Origin: Cymbomonas tetramitiformis
Lineage: Eukaryota > Chlorophyta > Pyramimonadophyceae > Pyramimonadales > Pyramimonadaceae
Direction of reading: 5' to 3'
Assembly (NCBI GenBank): GCA_001247695.2
Contig: LGRX02024693.1
Span: forward strand, 1 to 64,000
Length of the DNA stretch: 64,000 nt
Part shown: piece by piece, positions 12,323 through 42,300 of the stretch
Numbering within the stretch: the first letter of the stretch is position 1
Layout of the letters: each line of letters starts with the position of its first letter
Program-made: the position numbers and the translations under genes
Notes under the pieces: generated by a model
What the model was told of the DNA's origin: nothing
Database searches by the model: none
Seen by the model: only the letters and a program-made list of their open reading frames with translations

Positions 12323-13018
12323 TGTGCCCGGAGGCACAGCGTGAGCCGATATGCCTATGCGTCCGTATGTGTGTCATCGGGGGTAATCTGGGATTGACAC
12401 GATGACAGTGAAATTGGGCTTGAAATCACGATGAGAATGAGTACCAGATGTCCGGGGTATGACAGTATGACACTATGACACTATGACAGTATGACAGTAT
12501 GACACTATAGTAGTATGACAGTACTGTGGGGGGTGTCATCGTGGACTCAGTCAGACCCTCGAAGAATGGTCAGATTCGCATCGGGGTTGAAAAGACAATG
12601 AAATCGAATATCAGATATTAAGGTTATGACAGTATGACAGTATGACGCTATGACAGTATGACATGACAGTATGACAGTACAGTAGTATGACAGTACTGTG
12701 GGGCAGTCATCGTGTCAGCCTGTCGGCATAACATCTGAATCGAGAATGACGAATCGGAATTAGAAATGAGATCGGATCGGGAACTGAACGTTGAGCCGAA
12801 GTGTGACATCGGCTCTCGAGTGGTTGACCCTGCAACCCGAGTGACGAGTGAATAAGTAGAGCACTTGAGAAGTGTTTAGCCTTCAGAACTCGGAACCGAA
12901 TTATCGTTTGTACCTCAATCTGGCCCTGATCCAGTATATTATAAAATCCGAATTGTGTACCTTTGCACGTTCAATCAAAAACATATTTCCGAGCATTTGT
13001 CGTAGTGCCCCAGGCACA
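12323..13018 (+). repeat. 5' LTR of the retrotransposon
   Basis: 696 bp, TG...CA ends forming a short inverted repeat (TGTGCC/GGCACA). It includes two clusters of ATGACAGT-type microrepeats (about 12456-12530 and 12622-12700). A TATTATAAAA box-like sequence near 12937 could set transcription. It differs from the 3' LTR at about five positions (one indel and four substitutions by eye). Confidence 0.95.
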
Positions 13019-20269: not shown

Positions 20270-21927
20270 ACCCTCAAGTTTCAGGACTTCTGGGGTGAGG
20301 AGTACAAGAAGGAGATGACGACTGCCCTACCGAACATCGATGGGCTCAGACATGACCCCCAAGATGAAGCCAACATTAACCTGGACCCCGAGCTGAGCAA
20401 GAAGGGACCTCCCTGCCAGCGCATCTACAAGAAGTCCGCAGAGGAACTCCGCCAACTTCGAGAACGCGTGGAGACTCTGATGTCCAAGGGCTACATCCGA
20501 CCCTCTTCCAGCCCTTATGCAGCTCCCTGTTTGATGGTCCCTATGTAAACCCGGGAACCCCAAGGAGCTGCGACTGGTGATCGATTACCGGCTCCTCAAC
20601 CGCCAGACAGTTAAGGACAAGTATCCTCTCCCAGACATCCAGATGATGTTCGACGAGATGCAGGGTGCGAAGTTCTTCTCTTCGTTCGACGCGGTGGCGA
20701 TGGCTTCTGGCAAGTACCGATGGCACCAGGAGATGTCGAGAAGACCGCCTTCACCACCCAGATGGGGTCATATGAGTGGTTGGTCATGCCGCAGGGGCTG
20801 CAGAATTCACCGTCTCAGTACCAGCGACGGATGCAGCGGGCCTTGGGCCATCTCCCATTTGTCCGGATCTTCATCGATGATGTGGTCGTCTTCAGCAACA
20901 CCGCTGCAGAGCACTACGAGCACGTCAAGCAACTGCTCCTGACATGCAGGGAGAAGGGCGTCTTCCTCAAGAGGTCCAAGTGCCAACTGTTGAAGAAATC
21001 CTTGCGGTTCCTTGGCCACTGTATCTCCGCAGATGGCTGCAGACCCCAACACGACAAGGTGGCTGCAGTGAGGGACTGGCCCGAGCTGGAAACGGTTACC
21101 CACGTCAGGCAGTTCTTGGGCCTAGCGGGGTATTACCGCAGGTTCATCCACTGCTTCTCCGAGATCGCTCAGCCCCTCACCCGGTTGACCAAGTCGGACG
21201 TACCCTGGGAGTGGGGTCCCATGCAGCAGTGGGCCTTCGAGGAGCTGAAGAAGGCCCTCACCTCAGCGCCAGTGCTCGCCTTGCCCAACATTAAGGGTGC
21301 CGCAGACGGCACAGCACCTTTCGTGGTGCAGACGGATGCTAGCGGCATCGCTCTTGGGGGAGTACTGATGCAAGACAATGGAGATGGTCTTGGGCTGCGC
21401 GTGATAGCATACGAGAGCCGCCAGTTCTCAGCCGCCGAGCAGAATTATCACACCGGCGAGCGTGAGCTAGGTGCTCTACACCACTGTACCACCGTCACCT
21501 GGCGGCATTACCTCATCTTCACCAACTTCCGCATCCAGGGTGATCACCGCCCCCTTGAATGGCTGATGGAACCTGGCAGAGAGCTTAGCCGCAGACAGGC
21601 ACGCTGGTACATGGATCTGGTGGAGGTGGGAGTCCCGAGAATGGAGTACATCAAGGGAGCGCTGCTGCTGGTACCAGACGCCCTGTCCAGAAGACCCGAC
21701 TTCAAAGACAAGGACGTTCGCGAGGGGTTGAAGGAGGCAGGAGTGATCGACCCCACCTCAGACCTGCCGAAAGACCCTCTGGCAACGCTGGAGTCTGAAT
21801 GCTTCTCCAGCTCACCACCCGCGGCTCATCCCCACTGGGCCCAGACGGTTGACTGTTGGCTCTCAGCAGTGGAAACCCTCTCCGTGGCGGAACAGGCCAT
21901 GGACATGGGGGAGACCATCGCTCTCGT
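20270..21927 (+). pseudogene. pol: Pol, second part: reverse transcriptase and RNase H, frame broken
   Basis: Reading continues after the TAG in the same frame with KKSAEELRQLRERVETLMSK and YIRPSSSPYAAP, the usual RT entry. Frame changes at about 20545 and about 20700 are needed to keep KPGNPKELRLVIDYRLLN and then FWQVPMAPGDVEKTAF in line. The RT catalytic box FIDDVVVF lies at 20870-20893 with its two Asp, followed by FLGHCIS and HVRQFLGLAGYYRRFI. RNase H starts at VVQTDASGIALGGVL and includes the Glu of ERELGALHH and the Asp of DHRPLEW. The frame is cut at 21928-21931 (TAAT), where the nested element begins. Its own apparent stop at 21967 lies inside the guest. Confidence 0.92.
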
Positions 21928-21931
21928 TAAT

Positions 21932-21954
21932 AACACACTATTCGATGAAAATGA
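21932..21954 (+). repeat. Left terminal inverted repeat of the nested element
   Basis: 23 bp, exact inverse complement of 30741-30763. The TAAT target copy lies immediately outside at 21928-21931. Confidence 0.95.
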
Positions 21955-22280
21955 TATTCTCATGTGAAAATGATATTGCCTTATTTACCTCATGATAGGA
22001 TTAAAAAGCCGCATTTTAACAGTCAAGAACATGCAAGTGCAGGTTGTGCATTAGATTTAATGGTTTTTATGGTACAAAATTGAGGTCAAATGCACTTTTT
22101 CGAAATCTAGGAGGAGTGAAAACACAAAGAACTTTTGACTCAGAATCTATATACACGTTATACACATATTATTTACATGTTTTTTTCGTCTTGCTTTACG
22201 CGTCCACATCAGGTGCTACCGCTACCGCTACGCAATTATCAAAAGCTTCGTCTTCATCGGAATCATCCGATTCATTCAAG

Positions 22281-25200
22281 TCACCTAGGTCCTTGCGCGT
22301 GCGTTTGATTGGATTGTTGTGCAAGCAAAGCGACGACTATCTGCGCGTATTGCTCGTTCGGTATACTCCGTTCGGGGTCTTTCGCATCCACATTCCATGC
22401 CAGCACTATTTCATTCTTATCGAACGTCTCGGTAGACGGTCGGTGCCCCGGTGGCGCTGCGAAAGCTCCTACGTGACTCGCAAGTTGCTTGCCGAGGTGC
22501 TTCTTCTTGGTGTCGGTGTGCTTTTTGGGTTGGAAATAGCGATATTGCAGCTGTTGAGTTGACGGATAGCGCGCCTCCACCTTCACCAAGTACAACGGAT
22601 CCGACCATTCGCTTCGCTTCAGTTGTACGCGGAAAGCGAACTTGTCGTTTTCAGATTCCACCGCGAGAGCCACCGCAAAGCTGCCGACTGTCATCTGGCC
22701 GTAGGTGACCTCCCACTGGGCGTTGTCCACGTACTGCTCTGCTCGCTTTTGGGCTCGACCTTGGTGTTTCCGTTTACCGTTGTACACTTCTATCGGCGCT
22801 CGATCAATTCGGCGTTGGATGCGCACGGGTATAGCGGGGACGGCGGCAGCCCCGGCAGCTTCTATCGCCAACGCGGGCGCCTCTATCAGTCGAACCAAGG
22901 TGGCATTGCGCTCGATGGCGATTTTCTCGGGATGCTGGAAGGGTATCGCGGGCGCTTGACATTCTCCACCAGCAGTTAGGTGGCGCTGTTTCTCGATGAC
23001 ATCCTCGCGCCAAAACTTTTCGTGCACCTCCGTGAGCTTTGTGCCCAAAATGTCCTTCAACGCCTGTAAGGTATGCTCAAGCTTTTCGATGCCTTCTTCG
23101 GTAAAAGGAATCGGCTTGATGTATCCAGGCCCCGCGACAGGGGGTATAGAAACAAGCTTTGGCAATGGAGTCTCGGGTAACCATTTTGGTGAAATGGAAT
23201 ACTGTTTGTACTGCATGCCCACTTCGCCGTGCTCGTTCATCTTGAACTTGAAAGCCTGCTGTGCCAAAATATTGTGGCAATCGAAGACGTGACCATCAAA
23301 CCAAGAGCTGAAGTCGAAGATCTTCTCGGTGTGCTCGCATATTACACCATCCGTAAAGCATTCTTGTGCGACCTCTATCATCTCGTCGAGCGTCCAAGCT
23401 TGCTTGCGTCGTAGACGCACGGAGAAGCGTGAAAACATCTGGTCAATGTTCTCGTGCGTATGTCCCACCAACAGAAAGTTGAGTTTCACCTTGCGAAAGA
23501 CGCCCGTGTGCACCAGCCAAGCTGCGTATGCCAACATCAACTTGCTCTTGTTGGTGCTCACATTGTCAAGCTGTACATACAATACTTCCGGCATCGGGTA
23601 TGAATTTTCCCCGTCCCCGTTGCGTCGATGCTCTTGAATGCGGAGGATATCCCGGTGCAAAACGTTGACAAGGAAGTTCGCATCGTCCTTGAAGTTGGCG
23701 TAGTTGAAATCCATGAAGCGGCCCACGTTCTCGATCATGCTCCCCATGTTGTGCACGTCAAGGAAGTCCTTAGAGTCCAGATGTTTAGGGATACGTCGAA
23801 AGTGTGGCAGTCGGGTGGTCCACTGCGTCATGCCATCGATGATCACCGAGGCATACTTATGCCAAGTTTTGTTCATGGCAATGCTCTTGGTCATATTCGC
23901 TTTACGACCATGTTTGTAGAACTTCTGGCGCTCCGCTCGTGCGATTGCCAGATGTTTGTTGAGAGGCCCGTTGTATTGCCCTGTGCATGATACACAAATT
24001 CGGGTCAGTGAACAAATTACATAAACATATAAACACATCACAAAGCTATTCATGAATATTCACCTTTTTGAGATTTGGTTAAGCCTTCCTTCAATAACTT
24101 GAAGGACGCGCAAACATCGCAGTGAGAAAATCGGTTCACCGATGGAATCTTTAGCCACTTGCTGCAATCTTCTTCAAATATTTTGTACCAGTAACTGAGA
24201 GAGAGTTTTTTGCTCTCCTCATTCTCACCCAAGCTCTGAAGGTACTCGTCCCACAGCTCTTCGATGGTCAATCCATCTGAAAGGTGCTTCTCGGGTTTGT
24301 GAGGTTGGGGTTGTCCGTATTCGTCCGCGTATTTCTCGAGCCATGCGACGACCGACTCGCGTTTCAGGGAAATCTTGCGGTTGTCCTCCTCGTACGTCAA
24401 TCCATGAACAAACGTGTGTCGGCCCTCGAGCACGCGTGTTCGACAGTCTTGAAGATACCCGTAGCTGATGCCGTAAGCCATATAGTAGAACTTAAAGCAC
24501 ACCTGTTACAAAAAAAAACCGTCACTCAAAAATTAATAACACATTATCTAGAAAATGCATAAGGGTTTTGGTAGGTTGCGCCAATTTAAGACGCTTGGGA
24601 GACACCCCCAACACTGCACGTCTGCAGGCGGGACGGCCGTCGCATGCTCGTCAGCACTCTCCAAACCACGCCTTAAATCTGCGCAACCTAGACCCTCAGT
24701 GGGAATCGAACCCACGAGTGCGAGGTTCATAGCCTAGCGCCGTACCAACTCGACCAACGCGTCGCGAATGTACTTTATGAAATTTATTTAGAAATTTATG
24801 ATACAATATTCCACATTCCTGTGATGACATTACACAATCTATCACAAGGTCCAAGAAAAATTTCGCTTTGGCCAGCGGCCGTTCATTAGCTAAAGAACGG
24901 TTCCCGCAGCCAAAGTGTCTCTGTGTGAGTCGCGCTTTGGCCAGAGGCCGTTCATTAGCTAAAGAACGGTTCCCGCAGCCAAAGTGTCTAATTGTGAGTC
25001 GCGCTTTGGCCAGAGGCCGTTCATTAGCTAATGACCGGTTCCCGCAGCCAAAGTGTCTAATTGTGAGTCGCGCTTTGGCCAGAGGCCGTTCATTAGCTAA
25101 TGAACGGTTCCCGCAGCCAAAGTGTCTAATTGTGAGTCGCGCTTTGGCCAGAGGCCGTTCATTAGCTAATGAACGGTTCCCGCAACCAAAGTGTCTAATT

Positions 25201-26118
25201 GTGAGTCGCGCTTTGGCCAGAGACCGTTCATTAGCTAATGAACGGTTCCCGCAGCCAAAGTGTCTAAGTGGGAGTCGCGCTTTGGCCAGAGACCGTTCAT
25301 TAGCTAATGAACGGTTCCCGCAGCCAAAGTGTCTAAGTGGGAGTCGCGCTTTGGCCAGAGACCGTTCATTAGCTAATGAACGAGTTCAAAAAAAAACATA
25401 CCTGCTTCTTGGCCAAAAAGTATTTGAAGTCGAATTTGTCTTCAGATCGTGAGCTGTTTTTTAGCAAGTCTTTGATGAAGTATTCCTTCCTATCTTTTTG
25501 CGACATACTAAAAATATTTTCGCGAAAGGACTTAATATCTGCCGATGAGAAAGATAGACAGCAGTACGACTTGCAATTGCACTTAATGGTTTCTGCCATT
25601 GATATACTGTCAGCCTGCAAACGTCGCTGCTTGATACTAATTACGCCTGTATATTGTTTCTTGCGTATGTCGGATTCGTACGGTTTGCGCGTTACAATCT
25701 GCTTGTTTACTTCACCGTTAATGCACCGAAGAGGGTCTTCATTAAGCAAGTCTAAACTTGTCTCTGAAAATTCTGATTCTAGTTTGCTTTTTATCTCTTG
25801 TAAGTCAATTTCGCGCAAAGCGCGTGTCCCGGAAACGCGTGAAGAATTAGAGCTAACTTCCGATCTAGACGTCAAAGGCGCGTTCCAAAGAACCAATTGC
25901 GTATTTGCGCTCGGGGCTGTGCTTGGAATTGGCTCATGATTGAAAAAGTCAGCCTCTATTTCCATAGAATCTTCAATAACTATTCTCGGGCACGGTTTGC
26001 AGATAATCTCGCAACCTTCATCAAAAGGAATAGAAAACATATTTTCGTCAAAATTAGACGTCATTAGCTTATGAAGCCGTCTTTTACGTTCTGAAAATGA
26101 TATGGACTTGCGAGTCAA
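22281..26118 (-). CDS. DUF7869-like protein, probable transposase of the nested element, three exons
   Basis: Exons 26118-25402, 24502-24064 and 23980-22281 join in phase (CAG|GTATGT donor at 25402; AACAG acceptor before 24502; AAG|GTGAAT donor; GCACAG acceptor before 23980) to give 951 codons. Exon 1 ends with a Cys cluster (CNCKSYCC) and a helix of FRENIFSMSQKDRKEYFIKD type. The junction reads KKQ-VCFKFYYMAYGIS. Exon 2 carries a CDVCASFK knuckle. Exon 3 has conserved acidic positions: IIDGMTQW (about 23838), QLDNVSTNKS (about 23565) and LVGHTHENIDQMFSR (about 23450). This Cys-helix, then D, DN and GHTHENID layout matches a widespread eukaryotic family labelled DUF7869, probably with an RNase H-like fold; the family name is from recall and the transposase role is inferred. 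The 899-bp first intron contains the 69-bp array and a tRNA-like sequence. Confidence 0.8.
24691..24766 (-). tRNA. tRNA-like sequence, probably a pseudogene, in an intron of the nested element
   Basis: The minus strand has an A box (TGGTCGAGTTGG, 24745-24756) and a perfect T arm (GTGGG TTCGATT CCCAC, 24699-24715), with a plausible anticodon arm whose loop reads CTATGAA (anticodon AUG, which would be unusual). The acceptor ends do not pair, so it is probably not a functional tRNA. Next to it a 34-bp imperfect inverted repeat (24570-24603 with 24656-24694) overlaps its 3' side. Confidence 0.35.
24863..25382. repeat. Palindromic tandem array A: 8 units of 69 bp inside the intron of the DUF7869-like gene
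   Basis: Cores start at 24881, 24950, 25019, 25088, 25157, 25226, 25295 and 25364, always 69 bp apart. Six copies hold the 20-bp palindrome CGTTCATTAGCTAATGAACG or extend it by a base pair on each side. The first two have AAAG in place of AATG; the third has GACC in place of GAAC. Outer CTTTGGC and GCCAAAG segments make each unit a larger imperfect hairpin. The array ends about 20 bases from the exon-1 donor at 25402. Because 69 is divisible by three, it creates a spurious 194-codon plus-strand frame. Confidence 0.95.
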
Positions 26119-26388
26119 CGGAGAATTTCTATCTTACTAAATCGATCGATTCTCGATTTAAGCGCAAATGACACCAGGATATCTTCAAATCATATCCTTG
26201 ATCTGAACAGACCGAATCAGGAAGCGACAGCAAATGTCATTTTTGATTAAAATTGACATCGATATTTGACATGTCATTTTCAGCCGCCAGAAATGATTTA
26301 CAATATTGTGCTAAAGTTACATCATTTTTTCAAAGTTCTTTCACACACACCCCTTCCACAGTTGACAGCCAATTTCTCTCATTTCGCA
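26119..26388. promoter_or_regulatory. Shared upstream region of the two divergent genes of the nested element
   Basis: 270 bp between the minus-strand ATG at 26118 and the plus-strand ATG at 26389. It is AT-rich with short inverted motifs (ATCGATCGATTCTCGAT, TGACATCGATATTTGACATG). The plus frame is open further upstream but the 26389 ATG (MATPETFQVLRE) gives the better start. Bidirectional promoter function is inferred from position alone. Confidence 0.55.
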
Positions 26389-29300
26389 ATGGCGACACCC
26401 GAAACATTTCAAGTACTGAGGGAAACACATGTTTTCCAGTACTATCTAGCTAACAAGTGGAGCATTGTCAGAACGCTTGAAACCGACGATCCTCCTGACA
26501 CCTTGCAAATAGTGATTCACTCTGATGACCCAAACGAGCAGAATGAAGAAGTGTTTTACAGTTTTCCTCCGTTTACCTCTTCGACTGTAGTCGAGGGTAG
26601 CCTCGTTCCTGAGAAACGCGTAGCGTACAGTATCATTGAGAACCAGAATCCAATTCTGTATTTCGTCGCATTCAGAAACAGAAAGCTTACTGTGATCGAA
26701 TTAGACAGCGCAAACTTTGAGGAAACCTTCAGCCTTCCAAAGCACACAAATCGGCTTATGGCTTTTCAAAATTTGAAAACTAGGGCAGCAGGAGAAAAAA
26801 AAAAGCAAAGAATTCTATCTAGCGAGCTATGTAAACCAGGCGTGGAAAGCGTCGATTACAGCTCCTTTCTGGCAAAGCAAGAGGCCAGCGCCAGTGATGG
26901 ATGACCTCGGAATTGCTGGCGAGATACCTGTTGTAGAGGCTTCGGTACGTCCCTTTCATGCCCTGCGCCTGGACCGGGGCGGAAAGCGTTCATTAGCTAA
27001 TGAACGCTTTCCGCCCCGAAACGCGCGCCCTGCGCCCTGACCGGGGCAGAAAGCGTTCATTAGCTAATGAACGCTTCCAGCCCCGAAACGCGCGCACTGC
27101 GCCCTGACCGGGGCGGAAAGCGTTCATTAGCTAATGAACGCTTTCAGCCCCGAAACGCGCGCACTGCGCCCTGACCGGGGCGGAAGGCGTTCATTAGCTA
27201 ATGAACGCTTTCAGCCCCGAAACGCGCGCCCTGAGCCCTGACCGGGGCGGAAGGCGTTCATTAGCTAATGAACGCTTTCAGCCCCGAAACGCGCGCCCTG
27301 AGCCCTGACCGGGGCGGAAGGCGTTCATTAGCTAATGAACGCTTTCAGCCCCGAAACGCGCGCCCTGAGCCCTGACCGGGGCGGAAGGCGTTCATTAGCT
27401 AATGAACGCTTTCCGCCTCGAAACGCGCGCCCTGAGCCCTGACCGGGGCGGAAGGCGTTCATTAGCTAATGAACGCTTTCGGCCTCGAAACGCGCGCCCT
27501 GAGCCCTGACCGGGGCGGAAGGCCTTCATTAGCTAATGAACAGTTTCGTCTTGTCCCAGGCTGCCAGGAGAACGGATGTGCAGCGTGCTGCCGAACGCGC
27601 CCTTCAAGGACCTAGTGGCTCCAGAGCGTTTACTGGAGCGGGCGCTAATGTGGATATGTCTCAAGTGGCCACCCCATCTGAGGCAAGGAAGGCAGCCGAG
27701 GTGGCTGCACATGGGTGGCACGCTAAGCTAACAGTGGAGCATGCAGCAAAGATGGATTATGAGGAGAAAGCAAAGCTGTGCAGGCAAATCGAGATGGAGC
27801 ACCGGTGGCCGAACCCGATGGATACCGACGAGGCGGCCGAGAAAGGGAGTGTGTTTCGTCTCCCCATTGAATGCCTGTACCACGCGACGGGGTACGAGGC
27901 CTGCCGGGATCAAGAGAGGGGCTGGGTGAACGAGATCAAGTCCAGCAGAAAGGAGAACCCGTGGGCCCCTTTCAATGCGGGTCTTGTTGCGATCGACGAT
28001 GTCAAAACCCGTGCCGAATTCTCCCTGAGAAAAGCTCTCGAGGGAAAATACAGAGGCAAGGTTTTTGGGCACCAGCACTGTTATCAAGCCACCGACGAGT
28101 GTCACGAGGAAATCCCGTTGGAGGTAGCTTTCTGGCACTTCGAGAGCAAGATCTACATCGGTCTCACGCCTGACATGATTCGGTTTTTAGGCGAGATGCA
28201 GAACCAAATCGATCAGAAGACGAAAGGCAAAGACAACACCCAGTTCATGCAAGGGCTTCGTTCGACCCTTTTCGAAAAGCATGGGGTCGTGTACAGGGTT
28301 TACCGAGAAGCGTTGATCTCCGAGTTCGTCGCCGGCGTCCCCGAGGACACCGAACGGGGTACCCCTTATCAACCTGGGTATTACGAGGTCGGAGGGCTGG
28401 TGCAAAAAATGGCGGAGTTCGAATCAGAGCATGGATTTTCAGTCCCGGATCCCGAGAAATATCCCAACGGATTCCAGTACATGGAGAATGTGCAGACGTT
28501 TGAGCGCGAGGGAGACCCTGAGCTCCTCCCCGAGGTAGAGGTGACGATGAAGACGCTGAACGATGACATCAACGCTCACCTCGATCGGGTCACAAGTTGG
28601 TACCCCGTAATGTCTCACTTGAACCAAGCTATGAGGACGCATGTGAAGCAAGTAGCGATGTCCAAGCATTCGGTGTTCGGCGAAACTCAAATCAACCACT
28701 ACTTCATGCACTGGACAATTGCCAATTTCCGGCCGCAGACGTGGGACCTCTGCGTTAGCATCATGGAGGCTTACAGAAGGTTTGGCTTTTGGCTTCGAAG
28801 ACCAAAAAGCGCAAGGCCTCATCTTCGCCCGCTAAGGGACCCGCCAAGAAAGCTGGCAAAAAGGGCACCTCCAACCGACAGGTAAATTACTTTAAACTTC
28901 TGCTTCAAACAGTGTTTACCCCCCCAAAGCATCCTTTTCTATATTTTAAGACATGCTAAAAATGTTTTTTTTTACTTGCAGATGGAAGACGAGGTGCAAC
29001 GAGGAGGCGGGGACCAAGGAGCGGGCTCGTCTAAAGGGGCAGGCATTTTGGTGGAAGAAGCTCAGTTTCTCCACAATGCCAAATCCATGGGTATGACGTT
29101 CTGGATTAACTTGGGCGGCTTGGCGGGGGAGGCGGAGTTCGACAAGGTGGACACGTATCTGCGCCAGATTATCAACAAGGAGTTGTCAGTAAAAGAGGGG
29201 GGCCTGATGATAAGCCAGTTCAAGAAGGAACGCATGGTGCAGAAGCACTTGGTGTCCGCGGCGGGATTGCAAACCTGGGACGAATTCAAGAACGAGTTCA

Positions 29301-30490
29301 CCCCCTACTGGAGCTCCCAAGAGAAAATCGAGTCGTTGATCGGCTGCTTACCTTCAACTCAGGGGGGAGCGCGCCGGGGGGGATCTGGGGAAGTTCCGCA
29401 CGCGATCTTGAATTACGTCGAGAACGCGCGGGCGAATCTCAAAGAAGCGCAGGCGCCAAGCGCGGGGCAAATCCAAGGCTTGCAACAGGTCGAGGTGAAA
29501 GTCGACATCAAACTCTATCGGGAGGCGCGGACCGAGGGGCCGGAGCTTAAGGTTCCAGGAGAGGCAGGCCTTGAGGACGACGAGCCCACACATGAGACGA
29601 ACGTGCCGATGTTCCCTCGTTGGAAGATCGTCAAGGGCAGCATGAGCGATATGAAGGACGTCCCGAGGCTGCCCTTCACGGGGACGATCATCGACTGCAA
29701 TTACGCCCTTGACAAGGAGAAGACTCCCGACGCGATGACCAAGGAGGAGGTGCAACCGTTCCTGGAGTCTTTCAACGCCAAGACCACCGCCCCGGCATGG
29801 ACTATCGCTATCTTTTGCGGTTTCGTCCAACAAAGCGATTTCCTGGAGGTGATTGACAATTACTGCTCCGGCCGCGCGGAGCGGTTCTTCTGGCACAAGC
29901 AGAACGTGCACATGAACCCCAACAAGTCCGTGCGCTACAATGACGTTGAATGTGGCGTCCTGGGGTACCATGTAAAGAGCGATGCCCAGGGGGAGTCTAC
30001 TAAAAAGCCGGAGTGGATGTTCAACTTTGATACTGGAGAAGGTGAACGTGTGAGCCGCGCGTCACTTTTGCGCGGCTTCCCGGTTGTGCACCAGATGTTC
30101 AAACGCGACAACAAAGCCGTGAATAACCATCAGAAACCCCAAGCTCTGTTGATGGAGCTGATCCAGTGCCACATGCTCGGTGACAATCCGGGCAAGATGG
30201 ATGAGAACGGCCATCCACTCAACTGGATTCTCGACGCTTGCTGCGGCGTCGGCTCGACGTCCATGGCCGCCATGTGGTGTGGTATGAACGCGATCGGCTT
30301 CGACCACGACCAGTTCATGGTCAGCTCTGCGCAGCAACGGCTGATCAATTTCGACAACGAGCCCGATCAGGACGCCGAGACGAAGCCAAAACAGAAGAGC
30401 GAACCGACGGCGAAGGGCAAGGAAGCGGCCACTGCCGAATCTGAGGAAGAAGAGAATGATGAAGATGACGCAGATGATAATGATGATTAA
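26389..30490 (+). CDS. Large unfamiliar protein ending in an N4/N6 DNA methyltransferase-like domain, three exons, two frame errors
   Basis: Exons 26389-26944, 27560-28881 and 28982-30490 are linked by TCG|GTACGT...TCCCAG|GCT and CAG|GTAAAT...TTGCAG|ATG, all phase 0. In exon 1 the natural reading changes frame at an A10 run (26795-26804), after which KEFYLASYVNQAWKASITA and KRPAPVMDDLGIAGEIPVVE run into the donor. In exon 2 a T4 run (28787-28790) needs one more base to reach a lysine-rich tail (KTKKRKASSSPAKGPAKKAG). With both changes the product is about 1,128 residues. The last 300 residues look like an N4/N6-type methyltransferase: IIDCNY at about 29687-29704 sits where DPPY is expected, a WHKQN segment with a conserved Glu follows, then LDACCGVGSTSMAA (30228-30269) and IGFDHDQ (30295-30315) as the SAM-binding part. 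It ends in a long acidic tail. The remainder is unrecognised. Confidence 0.72.
26971..27541. repeat. Palindromic tandem array B: 9 units of 67 bp inside the first intron of the plus-strand gene
   Basis: Cores start at 26988 and every 67 bp to 27524. Eight copies contain the same 20-bp palindrome CGTTCATTAGCTAATGAACG as array A; the ninth has one changed base. In the first unit the palindrome extends perfectly to 42 bp (26978-27019), flanked by GGGGCGGAAAG and its complement. Outside the core the unit (CCCCGAAACGCGCGCCCTG...) is unrelated to that of array A. The last core ends about 20 bases before the exon-2 acceptor. Confidence 0.95.
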
Positions 30491-30740
30491 AATAGTAGGA
30501 TTTGTCGACCGCCCTGACTGATAGTATCAGTCATGCCTCGACGGTATAGGGTGAAAAGTACTCTACTCGTAAACATTTGAATAAAGAATGATACATGTAT
30601 GCATATTTCGGTGTTTTCATTGTACGCATACTGCACTTTTCTACCGTGTTGCCTTTATGTATCCCTATTTCGCGCATAAATATCACTAAACCCTGATTTT
30701 TTTGAAATATATATAAATCCAAAAATGACATATGATAATG

Positions 30741-30763
30741 TCATTTTCATCGAATAGTGTGTT
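30741..30763 (-). repeat. Right terminal inverted repeat of the nested element
   Basis: 23 bp, exact inverse complement of 21932-21954. The TAAT target copy follows at 30764-30767. Confidence 0.95.
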
Positions 30764-33700
30764 TAATCCGAAGCTCTATAAGGGAATGAAGGAGGATCAC
30801 CTCGACTTCGACATGCCTGACTGGCCTGAAGCTGATAGCGCGAAGCCGACAGAAGCTCCACACGAACCCCCTGACAGAGCTCCGCCTCAGATAAGGATAA
30901 CGAGGAGTATGTCACGCGCTGGAAAAGCCTCTACGACCCCAGCGCCTCCACAGTTGGCGTCACCGAAGACGCGAACGCCTACATCACGAGCTGACGCATC
31001 GGAGGCGCCCACTGAGAAGGTGCCAGCGAGCTCACCACCCCCGCAGCAGGCGCCCCAGCAGTCAGCTCCATCCCCGGTCCTTCACCCGCAAAAACGGCAG
31101 ACTCCCCCCGAAGACTCGCAGAATTGGCGTGTCCGAGCAGAGTACTCCTCGAAGTACGCCGAGAAGTTTGGACCCTTCGATGTGGACGCCTGTTGTGACT
31201 TTGGCGGCCGCAACAGACAGGCGGATAGATTCTGGACAGACTGCCTTTCGGAGAAATGGAGGGGCCTTCGGGTTTGGTGTAACCCTCCATATAACTCCAA
31301 GCACATTACGGTGGAGGCGATTTTGAACAAGTATATCGCAGAATGGAAGGCAGACACAGAAAACACCTCAGCAGTCTTCGTTCTACCAGATCACCAGTCC
31401 AAGCTCCCCGCGTGGCGCAAACTTTTCAGAAAGGCCAATATGCAGATCGTGGAGGTCATCCCCACTCACGATGATAAGGGCGAGCCCAATCAGTTCTTCG
31501 AGAACCCAGATGGGAAGGCCTTCGACCTTCGTTGGCCTGTTCTGATAGTACACGCCCCTTCCGCAAAACCACAGCCGGCACGCGTGAGGCACCCGCGAAC
31601 GTCCCCCGCTGTGATAAGGACAGGTGAGGCAGCAGCCTTCAGAGACGCAACCTCCCAGCAGTCGGACTCAAAGTTCCTGCGTGCGTTGAAAGCGGAGTAC
31701 ACCCGAGAGAGGACACTTCGTTCGCTGCGGGAGAAAGTGAAGGCGGCACCACACCAATGCCTACAGGACTTCAGGCTGGTGGGTGAAGTGGTTTGGAGGA
31801 CCGCAGCAGGGAGATATCAGCTGGTGCTGGGGGAGGACTCTCCACTTCGAGAAGTAGTGATTCGCCATGCTCATGAGTCATTGTCCTCGGGCCATACTGG
31901 GCGAGACAAGACTCTGGAGAGGGTGCTGCGACGCTTCTATTGGCGTGGTGCCGCGGAAGATGTGGGCACCTGGGTTGCAGCCTGCGCAGTGTGCCAATCA
32001 GTGAGGCCGCGGGGAACTTACCCGGATGGGTTGCTAAACCCTCACAGCATCCCGAACAGGCCATGGCAGGATGTCGCGGTGGACTTCGTCACCGGCTTGC
32101 CGGTATCAGAGAGGGGCAATGATGCTTTCGTGGCCTTCACCTGCAAGCTGACGAAGATGGTCCACGTTGTGCCGATGAACTTCGGCGACAGCTCCGCAGC
32201 TGTGGTGGCCAGAATCTACTTTGACTCGGTGTGGCGCTTACATGGCGCGCCTATGAAGATTGTCTCTGATCGTGATCCACGGTTTCAAGATGCTTTCTGG
32301 CAGGAACTCATGAGACTAATGGGTGTGAAAGTGGCTCGTACCACGCCGTACAACCCTCGGTCTGACGGCCAGGCGGAACACAGCAACAGGGTTATTGAGG
32401 ACATGCTCAGGTCCTTTGTAGACGCCAATGTGGAGGACTGGGATCTGTTCACCACTAACGTGGAGTTCGCGATCAATGACTCCAGGAGTGAATCTACTGG
32501 CTTCACGCCGTTTGAACTGGTGTTCGGGTTCTCGCCGCTGTCGCAGTTGGATCTTTTCCTGGAGGCCGCGAAGTCCACCGCCGGACGACGAACTGGGGGA
32601 GTAGGCACCGCACACGAAGTGGCTGTGAAATTTTCGTCGCAGCTGCGGGACGCCAGGCAGCGGTTGGAGCTGGCTCAACAGCGACAGCGCGAACAGTTTG
32701 ATCGCAGACACGGGCAGCGGGAGTATGCTGTTGGAGATCTGGTCTGGATAGAGGCGAAACACCATACGGAGAAGGTGATGGATCGCTCCATCTGTAGGAA
32801 ACTGACCAAGCGCTGGCATGGACCAGTTCCTGTGACCGAACGCTTCTTCAGCGATATACAGATGACCATGCCCGAGGCCGACAGAGGAGCTCCAGTAGCC
32901 TACCGCCTACGCCTCCCTCCTCACTGGCGGATTCACGACGTGTTCGCTCAACATCGCCTCAAACCGTACACCAGCGGTCAAGATGCTTTTGCCGCACGCG
33001 ATCACCTAGCAGTACCTGAAGAGGTGGTAGTGGACGGTCAGAAGGAAGCACACGTTGAGCGCATCCTTGCACGTCGAGTGCGGTCTGTTCGAGGGAAGGA
33101 GGTGGAAGAGTGGAAGGTTCGCTGGACTGGCTACTCCAAAGCTCACGACCAATGGAGGACGCGTGACAAACTTGAACGCGGAAGTCCACTTCAACAACTT
33201 CGTGAATTCGAGCAAGCGAGGCTGCACATGGAAGCGCAAGTCCGCGACGAAGCCACTCGGCGACGCGAGCAGCGTGGCCGCCACTCCGCTCAAGCCGGAA
33301 TGACACTGGCCCACCTCATCACTAATCCCTGCGATGAACTGGACCAGCTCGAGCAGATGGAAGATGATATCCCCCTGCCGTGGGAACGCCAAGAGCGCGT
33401 GGAAGATGGGTCGTTGGCACTGGTGACAGAGCTGCTGGCAATTCAGGCAAAAACAACCCGCACGCCCAGGATTCTCGTACTTTTCAGCGGTACTGGCTCA
33501 GTAGAGAGGGAATTCCTAAATTGCTTCCCCTCCGCCTCAGTAGTGACCCTCGACTCCGGGCATATCTGGCAACCCACTCATGTGTGTGACATCCTGCAAT
33601 GGGACTACAGACAATACCCGCCTGGATTCTTCGATGTTGGTTGGGCAAGTCCCCCCTGCAGGCAGTACAGTCAAGCGCGCACCACTGGTGGACCCCCTGA

Positions 33701-34121
33701 CCTTCCCCAGGCTGACAAAATCGTACGACGAGCATTGCAGATCATTGACTACCTGGAGCCAAAACATTGGTTCATGGAAAACCCCAGGGGTCGCTTCCCT
33801 AACGCGCTACGGCTTCGCCCTATGATGCGCCAGCTTCCCCCACCGCTGGTGTGTACCTACTGCATGTACGGTACGCAGTACATGAAACCCACCTGCATAT
33901 GGACGAACTCAGCACCACCCTCGCCCCTGCTACGCTGTACTACTTCAACACCGTGTGCGTGCAGATGGGCAACCGGTGCTCATCCAGAGACTGCTCAGCT
34001 TGGACCTCACCCGCAGCAGACTGGAGCAGGTCGATCTGCGAGTGTATATCCCGTGCCAGCACTCCTGCTACGACAACTTTTCCGACATTTACGCCTCCGC
34101 GACACTGAAGACCCGCTTTAG
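30764..34121 (+). CDS. pol: Pol, third part: Dam-like domain, integrase, chromodomain, Dcm-like domain
   Basis: Resumes in the same codon phase after the nested element (TAAT at 30764-30767 then PKLYKGMKEDHLDF). Domains in order: a Dam-like N6-adenine methyltransferase domain (about 31120-31440) with FDVDACCDFGGRNRQA and the catalytic-type motif NPPYN at 31281-31295; the integrase zinc finger HAHESLSSGHTG plus CAVC (31868-32005); the integrase core with Asp in VDFVTG (about 32081), Asp in SDRDPRF (about 32265) and Glu in GQAEHSNR (about 32370); a chromodomain (about 33020-33180, HVERILARR, WKVRWTGY, WRTRDKL); and a C5-cytosine methyltransferase-like domain (about 33470-34080) with LFSGTGS, ASPPCRQYS and ENPRG, ending YPVPALLLRQLF. 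The two methyltransferase domains are not part of a standard chromovirus pol. This 1.1-kb-codon segment is unbroken, unlike the upstream pol. Confidence 0.92.
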
Positions 34122-34308: not shown

Positions 34309-35005
34309 TGTGCCCGGAGGCACAGCGTGAGCCGATATGCCTATGCGTCCGTATGTGTGTCATCGGGGGTAATCTGGGATTGGCACGATGACAGTGAAAT
34401 TGGGCTTGAAATCACGATGAGAATGAATACCAGATGTCCGGGGTATGACAGTATGACACTATGACACTATGACACTATGACAGTATGACACTATAGTAGT
34501 ATGACAGTACTGTGGGGGGTGTCATCGTGGAACTCAGTCAGACCCTCGAAGAATGGTCAGATTCGCATCGGGGTTGAAAAGACAATGAAATCGAATATCA
34601 GATATTAAGGTTATGACAGTATGACAGTATGACGCTATGACAGTATGACATGACAGTATGACAGTACAGTAGTATGACAGTACTGTGGGGCAGTCATCGT
34701 GTCAGCCTGTCGGCATAACATCTGAATCGAGAATGACGAATCGGAATTAGAAATGAGATCGGATCGGGAACTGAACGTTGAGCCGAAGTGTGACATCGGC
34801 TCTCGAGTGGTTGACCCTGCAACCTGAGTGACGAGTGAATAAGTAGAGCACTTGAGAAGTGTTTAGCCTTCAGAACTCGGAACCGAATTATCGTTTGTAC
34901 CTCAATCTGGCCCTGATCCAGTATATTATAAAATCCGAATTGTGTACCTTTGCACGTTCAATCAAAAACATATTTCCGAGCATTTGTCGTAGTGCCCCAG
35001 GCACA
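34309..35005 (+). repeat. 3' LTR of the retrotransposon
   Basis: 697 bp, same ends as the 5' LTR. It is followed at 35006-35010 by CATCA, the copy of the target site found before the 5' LTR. Confidence 0.95.
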
Positions 35006-36393: not shown

Positions 36394-39300
36394 CTAGTCG
36401 ATGGTGCATAACAGTGCACCGCCTCGAAGGATCCACCTGGACGGGTGGTCCTCTGTTCGGAGCTCAAATTTGTCAATGTAATTCAGTCCGGTCCGCTTCT
36501 TCACCCGGTATGCTGGCGCTTGGTAGTTAGTCAACGCAGCGTCCTTCTTCTTATCCTTTGCCTGCACACCCGTTACGTATAGCACCGGCAGGGGTACATA
36601 TAGCTTCTTGGGCTCCGAGTCCACCAGCCGGTTCTCCTTACCGTGCCATGCCATACCATCCAGGTACAGGCCGTAAATGAATACACCCTCTGCAGCGCCC
36701 TCTCGCAGCGTCTCAAACTCCTTTGGTGGATGTGTCACCTCCGAGTTCATCACCACGTCATCGAGCGCCCACTTGTCCACAGCATGCTTGCGGTTCACCT
36801 CCTGCTTCATCGCCGTCAGGAAGCCCTGAGGGTTGAACCACCCGGTGAGCCAGTACGCCTTTGGGCGCCCCGTGTTGACCCACTTAAACAGCTGGTCGAA
36901 GCGCTGGAGCAGCCCGTTGAACCAGTTGCCTAGAGTAGCACTCTCCCAGGACTTCTTCAGCCACGTGGCAGGGATTCTCGCATCGAACAGCATGTTCAGA
37001 GCCTCAATCAGATCCCCGCTGAGCGCAATGGTGCCTGCGATCGCCAGCCTCAGATTCTTCAGTGTCTTCATGGTGAGCAGGATGATGGTGTTCAGCCGGT
37101 CCACCTCCTGCCGCAAGTGGATGGTCAGAGGCATCGTGTTGCCGCCCGGCAACTTCTTCAGCTTCTCCTTGGTGTCCTCAACCCCGAATGCCGGCGGTAC
37201 CTTGCCGATCAGATCCTCCGCCGTCTTGTCCACAATCTCCTCGCGCGACAGTCCCCCGCCCGCGCCGCCCGTCTTGGGCATGGTCTCCATGATGGTGGCC
37301 GTGCCGTTGTTGACAGCCAGGGTGCGGAAAGTGAGGTCGGCGTTCGAGTGCAGCCCGAAGATCTCCGGGGACTCTTGGTCGGGCAGCTGCTCGATGGCCT
37401 GACGGAACATGGCGATCTCGGTTGTGTCCGGGATGACGTACCCAGGGTAGATCTCATACCCCTTCTCCAGCACCTGCGGCTGGAAGTACTTGTCCGCGTA
37501 GGTGTCCATGAGGAGCTCGTCGAAAGCGTCTGTGATGCGGCCGCCGTACTGGATGGCCGACACCATGTACCGCACGGTGGCCCACGTGGGCTGGTTGGCC
37601 TTCTTCGCGTCCATCTCGATCAGATGGTTCTGCAGGAACTGCGTGCACGCCGACAGATCCGACTGGTTGAACTCGTACGGCACGTTCCACCCGATGGGCC
37701 CGAACTTGCGGCGCTCCTGCACCACCGACTGCAGGAAGCACTGTACGAACAGCAGCTGCCGCCACTCGTAGCGCTGCACCACGTCGAGCATGTCCTGCGA
37801 GACCCATGTGTACGAGTTGCGCAGGCCGGCCTTCATGCCCACGGGCGCCTCGTTGGTGATCTTGATGCCCATCTGCAGCAGGCCGATGGGGAACTGCGGG
37901 TGAGGCTCCGCCGTGATCCACAGGCGGAACTCCTCGTTCAGCTCCTCCGCCTTCACCAGGAAGGCCTCCACCTCCTGCAGGTATGCCAGGCCGAGGTGCA
38001 TGTTCTGCAGCAGCACCCACTGGCCCTCCGTCGTGGCCGAGGCCATGTACTTGCGCGCGATGATGTCCTGCCCTTGCCCCATGGACACCCCGAGCACCTT
38101 GATCTTCTTCTTCTTCGCCAGGTCCTCGATCAGCTTCGTCGGGTCCGCCCCTGGGGACAGCAGGCAGATAAGCGGGCACCGCTCATGGCTCTCCATCCAC
38201 GTGGTCTCCATGTTCAGGGGCACGGACTGCACAAACTGCGGGCCGAGGGAGTCCGCGATGTAGTCCTGCGCGGCGATCAGGGTGCGGTCAGGGCGGATCG
38301 CCTTCACCACGCACATGCGCTCAAACTTGGACACCTTCTCCTCGTAGTCCGGCACCTTGCAGGTCTCCGGGGCCTCCTGGTCATACCACTGCCGCCACAG
38401 GCCGTCATTGCGGTACACGCTGTCCTGCAGGTCAAAGAAGGTCGGGTTGCTGGAGAGCGCCACCGCGTCCAGCCAGGCGGAGTCGGGGAGCCACTCCTTG
38501 GGCTTCTTGCGGACGCTGCCGATGTCCAGCGAGCCGCCGCCCTTGAGGAAAATGTTGATGTGCTCCTGCTTCACCACCTTGGCTGACGTCAGCACCTTGT
38601 TGGTGAGCATCAGCGCGAAGATCAGCTTGTGGCGCTCGAACAAACCGCGCTGGGTGTACAGGTAGATGCTGTACGTGAGGTACTCGATGATGTTGTTGAT
38701 GCGCTTGGAGGGCATCGTCGCCTTCGGGGAGAGGTCGATGGCCTGCTCGTACAGGTCGTTGAACTGCCGAAGCGAGGTCTGGTACATGCAGTTGACTGTG
38801 GTGAACTCGGCAATGAGGAAGTACACCAGCGTCGCCCGGTGCGCCACTGGGCGGAACTCCTCGCACGCCTCCGTGATCTTCTTGTTGGTCTCGGAGGCGT
38901 TGATCAGCTTCTCGTTCACTTCCTGCGCCGTCTGCTTCGTCACCGCCAGCACGTCGATCAGCTCCGTGTCATCCAGCAGGTTGCCCTGAGAGTTGGACAA
39001 ACGGTAGAGCAGGTCGTCCTCCAGCTGCTTGATCTTCTTCTTGTAATTGGTCACTTCCTCGATCAGGGCGAGGCGCTGCTCCTCCAGCTCGTGCTTCTCC
39101 TTCAGGATGAGCTTGCCCAGGAGCTGGTCCTCCAGCCCCACCATCGTCACCGTGAAGTCGATGATGGTCACCTTCGCAGACAGCTCCGGGGTGTAGTGCG
39201 GGTTGGGCAGGCGTGTCGTGCAGAAGAGCACAAAGCTGGGGGTGAAGTCCACCTCCTTGTCCGCCAGCGCGATGATGTAGCCCTTGCCCTTTTTGGTGTG

Positions 39301-42300
39301 CCGCTTCTCCAGCACCGGGTCCAGCACCGGGTCCAGCTCCTCCTCGATGTTCTCAATCAGCATCGGCTTGCCGTACGACAGGCAGTCCTCCAGATGGTTC
39401 CGGAACTGCCGCTCCCGCAGGTTGGTCACCCTCAGCAAGTTCTGCTCCTCGCGGTTCTTGATCCACACGAGGCCCTGGCCCTGGGGATCGATCAGCACCG
39501 GGTAGCGCGTGGCGCGCGTCACCATGATGCCGTTCTGGATGGAGAGGTCGTCCGTGGGCAGGCCCTGCAGGTTCCACTCGCTCACCTCGGCGTCCTCCAC
39601 CAGGAACTTGGTCACGTCCAGGTTCTCCGTGGTCGGTATGCCACGTGTCACGCAGTCGCCGTAGAAGTCGCGGGTCAGCATCAGCTCGCGGAACTCCTTG
39701 TTGAAGGGCCCGAGGTACGACACAAAGGAGGAGCTCAAAGCGCAGTCGCCCGTCAGCCGTTGGATCTGGTTCTCAAACTCCTGCGACTGCTGAGTCCAGC
39801 GCACCTCCTCCCCACCGAGCGCGTTGATGAGCGCGTTCGCGCTGTCCATCTTCTTCTGCGTCGCCGCGGCGTCATCCTCCAGGCGCTGCTTCTCCGCCAT
39901 CGCCTCGTCAAACTCCTTCTGCATTTTGTCCAGGTTCGCCTGCACCTCCGCCATCTTGTCCTCCGCGCCCTTCTTGTCCTTCATGGCCACCTTCAGCTCC
40001 AGCTCCGCCGCCCGCAGCGAGATGATCTTCGGCTCCACCACCACCGCAATCTCGTGATAGGTCACCATCGCCTTGGTCCAGTTACACAAGCCCGCCACGT
40101 TGCCCGACGCCTTCTTCGCCGACTCGTATGTGTAGTCGCTGGACTGGAAGTACGGGAGCAGCAGCTCGCAGGTCTCATCGCTGATCTGCTCCTTCGGAAA
40201 ACTCATCAGCGCAGCCAGGAATCCAGTGTCGCCCATCATCTTCACCGCCTCCGTGTAGGTGCCGAGGATCACCATCTCGCCCTTGATGTCCTGCCAGGAC
40301 ACCTTGTCGAGGGCCATCATGCGGAGCACCAGCACCGTGTCGAAGATGCGCTTGATGATGTCGGGGGGGTTCTTCAGCGCCTTCAACGCCTGAATGTCCT
40401 TCGCCGTGATGGAGTTCAGCGCGTCCACGGCAGCGTCCAGCGCGGGCTGCGCCGCCGCCAGGTCTTTCTCCGCGTCCTCCTTCACTGCAGAGATCTCATC
40501 CGCCTTCTTCGTCACCCCCTCCACGATCACCAGCACTTTGGCCTTCTCCTTCTCGGCCAGCGCCGTGCCCGCGCTGATCTCCTTCAGCAGGTTGGCGCTC
40601 ACCTTCTGCGCCTCCGCGAGGTCCGCGTTCTTGATGGCTAGCTCGCCCTTCATCTTGTTCACATCCGCTTTCGCTTCAAACAGCTTCGTCAGCCCACTGT
40701 TGATCTTGTCCGCCAGCACCCGCACCTCGGACAGCTTCCGGCCGTACAGCTCCTTGTACCCGGCAATAAAGGAGAGGTATGACTTGGGCGTGACGTACGC
40801 GCGGCGGCGGTATTTCTCAAAGTACTCGTCGCACGCAGCAACCACAAAGTTGTGCACCCCCCCCATGTGGAACACCAGCGCCTCCTTGGCGTCCGCGCTG
40901 CACGCCATCTCGAAGTCCCCAATGAACTTGTTGGACACCGCGGTGAGCGCCTGCACGGGCCAGGGCAGGAACCAGTCGATGGTGCAGCCGTTGATCAGGC
41001 CCGGGAACTGGGACGCGCGCGTGGAGAACTTGATCCCCACGGGGGAGAAGCACAGCGACAAGTGCAGGTTGTTGCGCACGCGGCCCATGAAGAACGCATA
41101 CAGGTTGTCCCACGTATCCACCGTGCCCGGGCTCTCCTTCTTCATCACCCCGCGGATGTCGTTCACGATCATGTCGAGCTCGTCCTTGGGGAACAGGCCA
41201 GCCACCTCGCCTGTCATCAGGATCTGGTTGATGTATTCCAGGAAGCCCTCTTGCTTCACCTCGGCGTCCGTGAAGATGAAGCACACCTTCTGGCCCTTGA
41301 AGCCCGCCAGCTTGTACAGCCCCTTGATGTCCTCAAACAGGTTCGTCTGGTTGTACGTCTTCGTGACGGTGATCTGGAACGTGAACGCCCCGGAGATGTA
41401 CGCCGCCAGCCGCGTGAGCGACTGCTTCCCGGACCCCCCAACGCCCACCAGGAGGGCGCTCCCGCGGTCCATGCACAGCAGCCGCGCCACCCGCATCAAG
41501 TGCAGCAGCGCGTCCTCGAACAGCACCAGCTCCAGCTTGATTGCCTTGGAGCCTTCGTTGAAAGCCTTCTGCCGGGACTCCACCACGGCGCGCAGCACCT
41601 CCAGGTTGTCCACGCTCTCGTAGAAGGAGGGGTTGGCATTGATCACCTCGCCCGTGTCCTCATCCACCTCCGGCTCCCGCAGGAAGTCCACAAAGTACAG
41701 TGGGGTGTCGCACTGCTTCCGCATATCGTCGCCGAAAGTCTCCTTGATCAAGCTCATGATCAGGTCCACGGTCCACTTCTTGTCCTCGGGGGTGGTGAGC
41801 TTGTCGCAGAACACGCGCTCGCACTCGTGCCGCCACAGCGCCACCAGGTAACCTTGCGGGGTGTCGATCTTCGCTCCGAAGGGGGGCAGCTCCGCGCCGA
41901 GGTTGTTGAAGCGGTCGCGGGATGCGAGGATTAGTCCCTGGAACACCTTGGAGAGCTCGCGCAGGTTGAACAGGTAGTGGAACTTCGCCGGCGTTGGGAG
42001 CATCTTCACCTGCACCTTGTTCCACAGCGTGATGGTGATGGGCACGATCTTCGTGGCGGACTCCACCGTGTCCTCGTCGAAGTTTGCCGCGTCAAAGCGC
42101 CCGGTCATCAGTGCCCCAAAGATGCTGTTGATGGCCGTCACGGAGGGCAGCGGCGTATACAGCATACAGAAGTGGCGCTTCAGGCGGTTGGGCATGTCGT
42201 TCTTGCCCCCTCCGGGGGTGTTCATTGCCGCGATGTACAGGCAGTCGACAATCATCTTCATGTCGCCGATGGGCTTCTCGAGGGAGTACATGCCGCCCTG

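What the first reader, a model, noticed from the sequence alone, without database searches (positions are those of the whole stretch)
24863..27541. Two palindromic tandem arrays with one shared 20-bp core, each placed inside an intron of one of two divergent transposon genes
Array A (8 x 69 bp) fills intron 1 of the minus gene; array B (9 x 67 bp) fills intron 1 of the plus gene. They share only CGTTCATTAGCTAATGAACG; the rest of the units is unrelated. Homogenisation within arrays but not between them, with a preserved common core, suggests selection on the palindrome, for instance as a dimer-binding site for an element-encoded protein, a cruciform structure, or a dual regulator of divergent transcription and splicing. 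Intronic location lets the arrays persist without disturbing the proteins. I know of no described element with this layout.
Basis: partly seen in the sequence, partly recalled or inferred. Interest (0 to 1): 0.9.

Follow-up and report, generated by a model that had tools for sequence, protein, structure and literature searches.

The report
Paired operator-like arrays in transposon introns
A jumping gene that is very common in a marine green alga carries two clusters of a short mirror-like DNA word inside the introns of its two genes, and related jumping genes keep the same layout with their own version of the word, which points to a built-in control switch read by a protein the element itself makes.

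Summary
Array A (24864-25387, 69 bp) and array B (26960-27541, 67 bp) lie in predicted introns of two divergent genes and share only CGTTCATTAGCTAATGAACG (17 sites, 0 expected). They belong to an 8.8-kb DNA transposon (21932-30763; inverted ends, 4-bp target duplication) nested in a young Gypsy retrotransposon of, almost surely, Cymbomonas tetramitiformis. The minus gene is a DUF7869 protein modelled with an RNase H-like transposase fold; the plus gene resembles an N6/N4 DNA methyltransferase. The decisive finding is comparative: two sister families in the same assembly (transposase about 72% and 49% identical, synonymous sites near-saturated or saturated) also carry two intronic arrays. In each, both arrays share a family-specific palindrome (GTATCATTRGCYAATGATAC; GGTTCATGAGCCCATGAACC), while spacers are unrelated. 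Core-like sites also lie near the promoter. Different matched cores in one genome argue for an element-encoded, co-evolving DNA-binding protein, so operator arrays flanking a bidirectional promoter are most likely. Binding, splicing and function are untested. 'First introns of both genes' holds only partly: the 49% family uses a non-homologous minus-gene intron and two plus-gene introns.

The parts
12323..13018 (+). 5' LTR of the host Gypsy retrotransposon
   Evidence: 99.3% identical to 34309-35005
34309..35005 (+). 3' LTR of the host Gypsy retrotransposon
   Evidence: RT/RNase H at 20615-21967 and integrase/chromodomain in 30729-34121
21932..30763 (.). DNA transposon, 8832 bp, inserted in the retrotransposon pol gene
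   Evidence: inverted terminal repeats; TAAT at 21928-21931 and 30764-30767; joining the flanks leaves one open frame up to the pol stop
21932..21966 (+). left terminal inverted repeat AACACACTATTCGATGAAAATGA...
30729..30763 (-). right terminal inverted repeat
25402..26064 (-). minus gene exon 1 from its first ATG (26064); the ATG aligned with the sister family is at 26040
24503..25401 (-). minus gene intron 1, contains array A
   Evidence: GT-AG sites
24064..24502 (-). minus gene exon 2
22281..23980 (-). minus gene exon 3: DUF7869 domain
   Evidence: PF25273 163.6 bits; RNase H-like model
24864..25387 (.). array A, 69-bp units, 8 cores
26960..27541 (.). array B, 67-bp units, 9 cores
26945..27559 (+). 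plus gene intron 1, filled by array B
   Evidence: GT-AG sites
26389..26944 (+). plus gene exon 1 (apparent frame break at the A-run 26795-26804)
27560..30490 (+). plus gene downstream exons (intron with GT-AG sites near 28882-28981); 3' part resembles an N6/N4 DNA methyltransferase
   Evidence: PF01555 below cut-off here (22.3 of 26.7 bits), above it in the sister family (31.8); splice sites
26061..26074 (.). single core-like site TCATTAGCTTATGA, overlapping the first ATG of the minus gene and about 20 nt upstream of the ATG shared with the sister family
   Evidence: 1 mismatch to TCATTRGCYAATGA; mean 0 at 2 mismatches or fewer in 20 shuffles of the element; counterpart in sister family
26065..26388 (.). 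presumed bidirectional promoter region between the two genes
   Evidence: position only; inference

Best explanation
The arrays are clustered operators of a DNA transposon. A protein encoded by the element, acting as a dimer, recognises the palindrome as DNA. Two operator clusters, about 0.6-1.2 kb to either side of the shared promoter, plus a core-like site near the promoter, let that protein control both genes according to its concentration and hence to element copy number, possibly by bridging the arrays into a loop, and perhaps also serve as an internal aid to transposition. Introns tolerate expansion of the arrays without harming the proteins. Shown: element, nesting, arrays, conservation across copies, and family-specific co-divergence of the core. 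Predicted from sequence: the introns. Inferred: that the ligand is an element protein, that it is a dimer, and that the outcome is regulation. Which of the two proteins binds is open; the transposase N-terminus is my first candidate, the methyltransferase-like protein the second.
For: Main family: array A lies in the minus intron in 28 of 31 loci examined (L005-L034, L053), with both exons in view in 26 (L027 and L034 run off the locus on the exon 1 side). In 26 of 26 loci with the donor site in view, 19 nt of intron precede the first core; unit number there varies from 4 to 10. Core against spacer substitutions: 7/3860 and 313/9457 in 193 interior A units, 7/660 and 117/1551 in 33 B units (units are not independent; B units of four loci were chosen by spacer words, which if anything lowers spacer variation). 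Sister family S72 (two copies read across both arrays, two more for array A): array in the same minus intron (period 68) and in the plus intron (67), both of the form GTATCATTRGCYAATGATAC with some end changes. Sister family S48 (two copies read across both arrays): periods about 152 and 144, both built on GGTTCATGAGCCCATGAACC, in predicted introns of both genes. Spacers are unrelated between arrays and families, apart from A/T runs beside the S48 cores. Transposase exon: pS 0.73 (main-S72) and 0.775 (main-S48), pN 0.17 and 0.34, so unconstrained DNA is not expected to keep 14 of 14 core bases, as main and S72 array B do. The families lie in one assembly, so a single host factor would not explain different matched cores. 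A core-like site in the minus 5' region of main and, with the S72-type half-site GTATCATTG, of S72. Periods are close within each family (69/67, 68/67, 152/144). In S48 the asymmetric centre AGCC has one DNA orientation in 6 of 6 minus-array sites and 7 of 8 plus intron 2 sites, the eighth being symmetric.
Against: No binding, expression or splicing data exist here; S48 introns are my reading of splice sites and frames. No known DNA-binding domain was identified by profile search in either protein. The S48 core is not a perfect palindrome; S72 array A has centre GGCC in four of five units and array B AGCT in all (consensus 90% identical); two of eight A cores in the window carry TAAAGAACG. The S48 minus array is in a non-homologous intron, so arrays were partly re-formed rather than inherited. 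S48 has a further core at 8404 (C954) / 8792 (C17749) that I did not place in a gene. L031 may be a main-family copy without array A. Array B was read in the window and six other loci only. That all contigs come from one organism is assumed. Exchange between the two arrays limited to the core is not excluded.
Confidence: 0.55

Rival explanations
1. RNA-level function: each core folds into a hairpin in the pre-mRNA and controls splicing or stability of the transcripts.
For: Cores sit in predicted introns in all three families; units extend into longer inverted repeats of up to 44 bp that could form stems; in array B the last core lies close to the 3' splice site and holds a CTAAT branch-point-like word (sequence; the branch-point consensus is recalled).
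Against: In S48 the loop AGCC has the same DNA orientation in both arrays, so the two transcripts would carry different loops (AGCC and GGCU). In main array B the perfect palindrome falls from 44 bp in the first unit to 22 bp in most others while the core stays. Core-like sites also lie in the 5' or intergenic region. The CTAAT word is missing from the GGCC-centred cores of S72 array A.
Confidence: 0.15
2. Host transcription factor sites: a cellular activator binds the palindromes, making the arrays intronic enhancers.
For: Repeated sites near a promoter in a high-copy family would suit enhancers; ATTAG/CTAAT resembles homeodomain half-sites (recalled).
Against: Three families in one assembly keep three different cores, each matched between its two arrays; one host factor does not predict that.
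Confidence: 0.14
3. Mechanical origin without function: palindromes provoke replication slippage and expand into arrays wherever they are tolerated, that is in introns.
For: Palindromic repeats occur elsewhere in this genome, for example window 3853-3928 and L047 2833-3143; array length varies between copies.
Against: Does not explain the same family-specific core in two arrays with unrelated spacers, nor conservation of the core against near-saturated synonymous change.
Confidence: 0.08
4. Internal transposition sites: the arrays are bound by the transposase to assemble or stimulate the transposition complex, and gene control is secondary.
For: Terminal repeats contain AATGA words like the core half-site; internal enhancers are known in phage Mu and P element (recalled).
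Against: The half-site in the S48 core (CATGA) is not followed in the S48 left ends (AAAATGAC), so ends and arrays do not co-vary there.
Confidence: 0.08

Closest known systems
Spm/En and other CACTA transposons (TNPA and subterminal repeats)
   Same: Two element proteins, one a transposase; many copies of a short motif that differs between families and may co-evolve with an element-encoded DNA-binding protein (passages of PMC2613891). Recalled: Spm has a GC-rich repeated downstream control region governed by methylation and TNPA.
   Different: Motifs there are subterminal; here they are internal, in introns on both sides of a presumed bidirectional promoter, as tandem arrays. Ends are AACAC not CACTA, duplication 4 bp not 3.
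Phage Mu internal enhancer/operator and P element internal inverted repeats (recalled)
   Same: Internal binding sites near promoters used for gene control and/or transposition.
   Different: A few sites, no tandem arrays (recalled); no sequence relation tested.
Mariner-type transposases (Mos1, SETMAR)
   Different: 8% identity; 4-bp target duplications without TA. Foldseek gave no match at E 0.001 or better, and its first row by E-value is NurA at probability 0.25.
DUF7869 proteins of Chara, Riccia, Adiantum and metagenomes
   Same: Same Pfam family PF25273.
   Different: Their DNA context was not read; whether they have arrays is unknown.

Membership tests
Cut-and-paste DNA transposon with RNase H-like transposase | terminal inverted repeats | tested here: met
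   35 nt, 91% complementary; both ends in S72, left ends only in S48
Cut-and-paste DNA transposon with RNase H-like transposase | fixed-length target site duplication | tested here: met
   4 bp in 5 of 5 copies with both ends in view: TAAT, CTGT, CACC, TACC, CGCA; no S48 copy tested
Cut-and-paste DNA transposon with RNase H-like transposase | RNase H fold with conserved acidic residues | tested here: met
Tc1/mariner | TA target duplication | tested here: not met
   4-bp non-TA duplications
CACTA | CACTA termini, 3-bp duplication, subterminal repeats | tested here: not met
   AACAC ends, 4-bp duplications, arrays internal
Sola2 and other families with 4-bp duplications | transposase homology to the reference family | not tested
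   no reference transposase set was searched; the 4-bp duplication of Sola2 is recalled
Operator array of an element-encoded regulator | site sequence co-varies with the element family at several places in the element | tested here: met
   three families, both arrays each
Operator array of an element-encoded regulator | specific binding by the element protein | not testable with these tools
   needs protein and DNA

The most novel reading that the evidence does not exclude
A eukaryotic DNA transposon with a built-in copy-number-sensing switch: an element-encoded dimer binds two intronic operator arrays and a promoter-proximal operator, bridges them into a loop around the bidirectional promoter, and silences or tunes transposase and a DNA-methyltransferase-like partner. 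Operator and protein co-evolve, so each family in the nucleus is regulated privately.
Probability: 0.3. Interest if true: 0.85.

Novelty: new variant of a known kind. Interest (0 to 1): 0.72.

Why it matters
High-copy transposons must limit themselves, and several co-diverged families with matched site pairs in one genome make a natural specificity experiment: the prediction that each family's protein binds its own core and not the others can be tested directly. It also gives a structural reading (RNase H-like transposase) to a domain of unknown function that occurs in green algae and land plants.

Tried and rejected
Presence outside the host: the exact core was not found in viral contigs; a two-core pattern was not found in viral or GTDB genome contigs. 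Relatives of the DUF7869 exon in viral contigs: 3 pattern matches, none confirmed. The S72 plus-gene ORF had no match in phage records and only weak methyltransferase matches among solved structures (best E 0.069). Rfam: nothing at gathering threshold in the window; no tRNA by ARAGORN, so the tRNA-like stretch in intron A is by eye.

Branch-point idea (core contains CTAAT): rejected as a general explanation because the GGCC-centred S72 cores lack it and the main array A lies next to the donor, not the acceptor. Kissing-loop idea: S48 loops AGCC and GGCU would pair between transcripts, but S72 loops (GGCC, AGCU) would not pair fully.

Site at the start codon: I first read 26061-26074 as enclosing the start codon in two families; a check showed that in S72 the ATG in the site runs into a stop and the ATG shared by both families lies further downstream (26040 here), so the site is upstream of it.

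Shared recognition of arrays and termini: AATGA words occur in both, but S48 left ends do not follow the S48 core; left as a lead. Methyltransferase catalysis: the DPPY position reads DCNY/DCVY in main and S72 while LDACCGxGST and HQKP are kept (motif meanings recalled), so activity is doubtful.

A first profile of array units counted edge units and overstated spacer variation; it was replaced by interior units only.

Not done: genome-wide counts of A-type, B-type and sister-family cores, and a fourth family (P0009, 58% identity), because the genome search answered only four requests. Only the first places of the 12,214 core hits were listed; the six loci with array B read from those contigs (C23, C39, C62, C70 twice, C111) all align to this element beside the array on at least one side, one of them a deletion derivative. 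Literature: 0 papers hold DUF7869; 0 hold 'palindromic tandem repeats' with transposon and intron; the one paper holding all five terms is a bacterial genome; one search was seen as a listing. Passages only were seen of PMC10675990, PMC5741210 and PMC2613891.
Full report
WHAT IS THERE. The window is part of contig C15979 of an 851.7-Mb genome. The DUF7869 exon is 99% identical to a protein of Cymbomonas tetramitiformis, CYMTET_15056, and a long-read assembly of that alga of similar size (914.3 Mb, 68% interspersed repeats) is published (PMC10675990, passages), so the host is almost surely this green alga. A Gypsy retrotransposon with LTRs 99.3% identical (12323-13018, 34309-35005) is interrupted in pol by an 8832-bp DNA transposon (21932-30763) with 35-nt inverted ends and a TAAT duplication; joining the flanks leaves one open frame up to the pol stop. 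The insertion is therefore younger than a young retrotransposon.

THE ARRAYS. Both arrays are real, at the stated places, and share only the 20-bp core. They lie in introns with GT-AG sites in two divergent genes. The predicted spliced minus protein agrees with the deposited model P0001 at 695 of its first 700 residues; the published annotation combined transcript evidence with ab initio models (PMC5741210, passages), but I saw no transcript for this gene.

THE ELEMENT IS ABUNDANT AND ALIKE. A search with the DUF7869 exon gave 4296 first-look candidates; the 74 that were scored are 98-100% identical, and a search with the plus-gene exon gave 2424 candidates, 95 scored at 87-100%. The core has 12,214 sites with up to 2 mismatches in the genome, against 0 for the pattern read backwards. 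Array A is in the minus intron in 28 of 31 loci examined, with both exons in view in 26; L053 shows its last unit, with a ~540-bp insertion further on in the intron; L022 breaks off in exon 2; L031 keeps the stretch next to the array but has about 700 bp of unrelated sequence in its place, and may lack the array. In 26 of 26 loci with the donor in view, 19 nt of intron precede the first core, and unit number ranges from 4 to 10. Array B was read in the window and six other loci, all with plus-gene sequence on at least one side, one a deletion derivative.

SISTER FAMILIES: THE KEY TEST. A search with P0011 brought two sister families. In S72 (transposase 72% identical) the same minus intron holds five cores at 59-68-bp spacing and the plus intron six cores, mostly at 66-67 bp, of the form GTATCATTRGCYAATGATAC with some end changes. 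In S48 (about 49%) the minus gene holds three cores at about 152 bp and the plus gene one in intron 1 and, in copy C954, five at 143-144 bp in intron 2; these are GGTTCATGAGCCCATGAACC or one to three changes from it. A further S48 core (8404 in C954, 8792 in C17749) was not placed in a gene. The S48 minus array is in an earlier intron than in the other families, so a place in an intron is kept but not the very intron. S48 gene models are mine; its first plus exon has no detected similarity to the other families. Spacers of the six array types are unrelated apart from the core and, in S48, A and T runs next to it. Synonymous sites of the transposase exon differ at 73% (main-S72) and 77.5% (main-S48), against 17% and 34% at nonsynonymous sites. 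Unconstrained DNA of that divergence is not expected to keep a 14-bp identity, yet main and S72 array B share TCATTAGCTAATGA completely. Changes that distinguish the families are present in both arrays and in both halves of the palindrome. Exchange between the arrays restricted to about 20 bp is possible in principle but seems unlikely.

A THIRD SITE. Outside the arrays, the main element has one site with 1 mismatch to TCATTRGCYAATGA (26061-26074), and S72 has a counterpart at the aligned place whose left half is the S72-type GTATCATTG. In both it lies about 20 nt upstream of the ATG that the two families share (26040 here); in main it also overlaps an earlier in-frame ATG. S48 has GTTCATTGGTTTATGATTGAAC between the genes and another match in plus exon 1. 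Shuffled elements gave a mean of 0 to 0.15 sites at 2 mismatches or fewer (20 mononucleotide shuffles each).

HOW IT MOST LIKELY WORKS. The sequence pattern is that of binding sites: core kept, spacer free, spacing similar in the two arrays of a family (69/67, 68/67, 152/144). Because three families in one assembly keep private, matched cores, the reader of the site is most likely encoded by the element. The S48 orientation result favours DNA over RNA as the thing read. The sites flank a presumed bidirectional promoter with 1.6-1.9 kb between the innermost cores (1610, 1770, 1772, 1904 and 1904 bp in five copies), and a further site lies in the 5' region of the minus gene, so autoregulation, perhaps by looping, is the simplest use. 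This last step is inference.

KNOWN PARALLELS AND NOVELTY. CACTA elements also carry family-specific repeated motifs bound by an element protein, with co-evolution proposed (PMC2613891, passages), but in subterminal positions. I found no description of paired intronic palindrome arrays in a transposon (a limited open-access library, and several searches failed). I rate it a new variant of a known kind, with a minority chance of a new mode of transposon self-control.

Noticed in passing
20615-21967 and 30729-34121: The Gypsy pol reads RT-RNase H, a Dam-type adenine methyltransferase (PF05869, 33 bits), integrase, chromodomain, and a weak C5 DNA methylase match near the end (15.9 bits, below cut-off): a retrotransposon with two methyltransferase-like regions.
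   Followed up: partly
12413-12714 and 34399-34701; 3853-3928: LTRs contain arrays of TATGACAG-like units, and a palindromic repeat array with GTAGCTAC centres and TGACAG words lies at 3853-3928, outside the retrotransposon; half-sites look alike.
   Followed up: no
L047 2833-3143: A palindromic array (CGCTTGAAGTGGACTTCAAG) lies beside a truncated S48-type copy, suggesting palindromic arrays in other elements of this genome.
   Followed up: no
24560-24770: tRNA-like (SINE-like) stretch in intron A; the part nearest exon 2 is present in most copies read, the tRNA-like part is missing in many; ARAGORN finds no tRNA.
   Followed up: partly
26795-26804 and about 28770-28800: Two apparent frame breaks in the plus gene, one at an A-run; may be long-read errors or decay.
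   Followed up: no
L042 602-1216: S48 elements carry another tandem array (142-bp units) close to their left end, without the core.
   Followed up: no
36394-48919: Axonemal-type dynein heavy chain gene with a 3539-codon open frame downstream of the nested elements.
   Followed up: no
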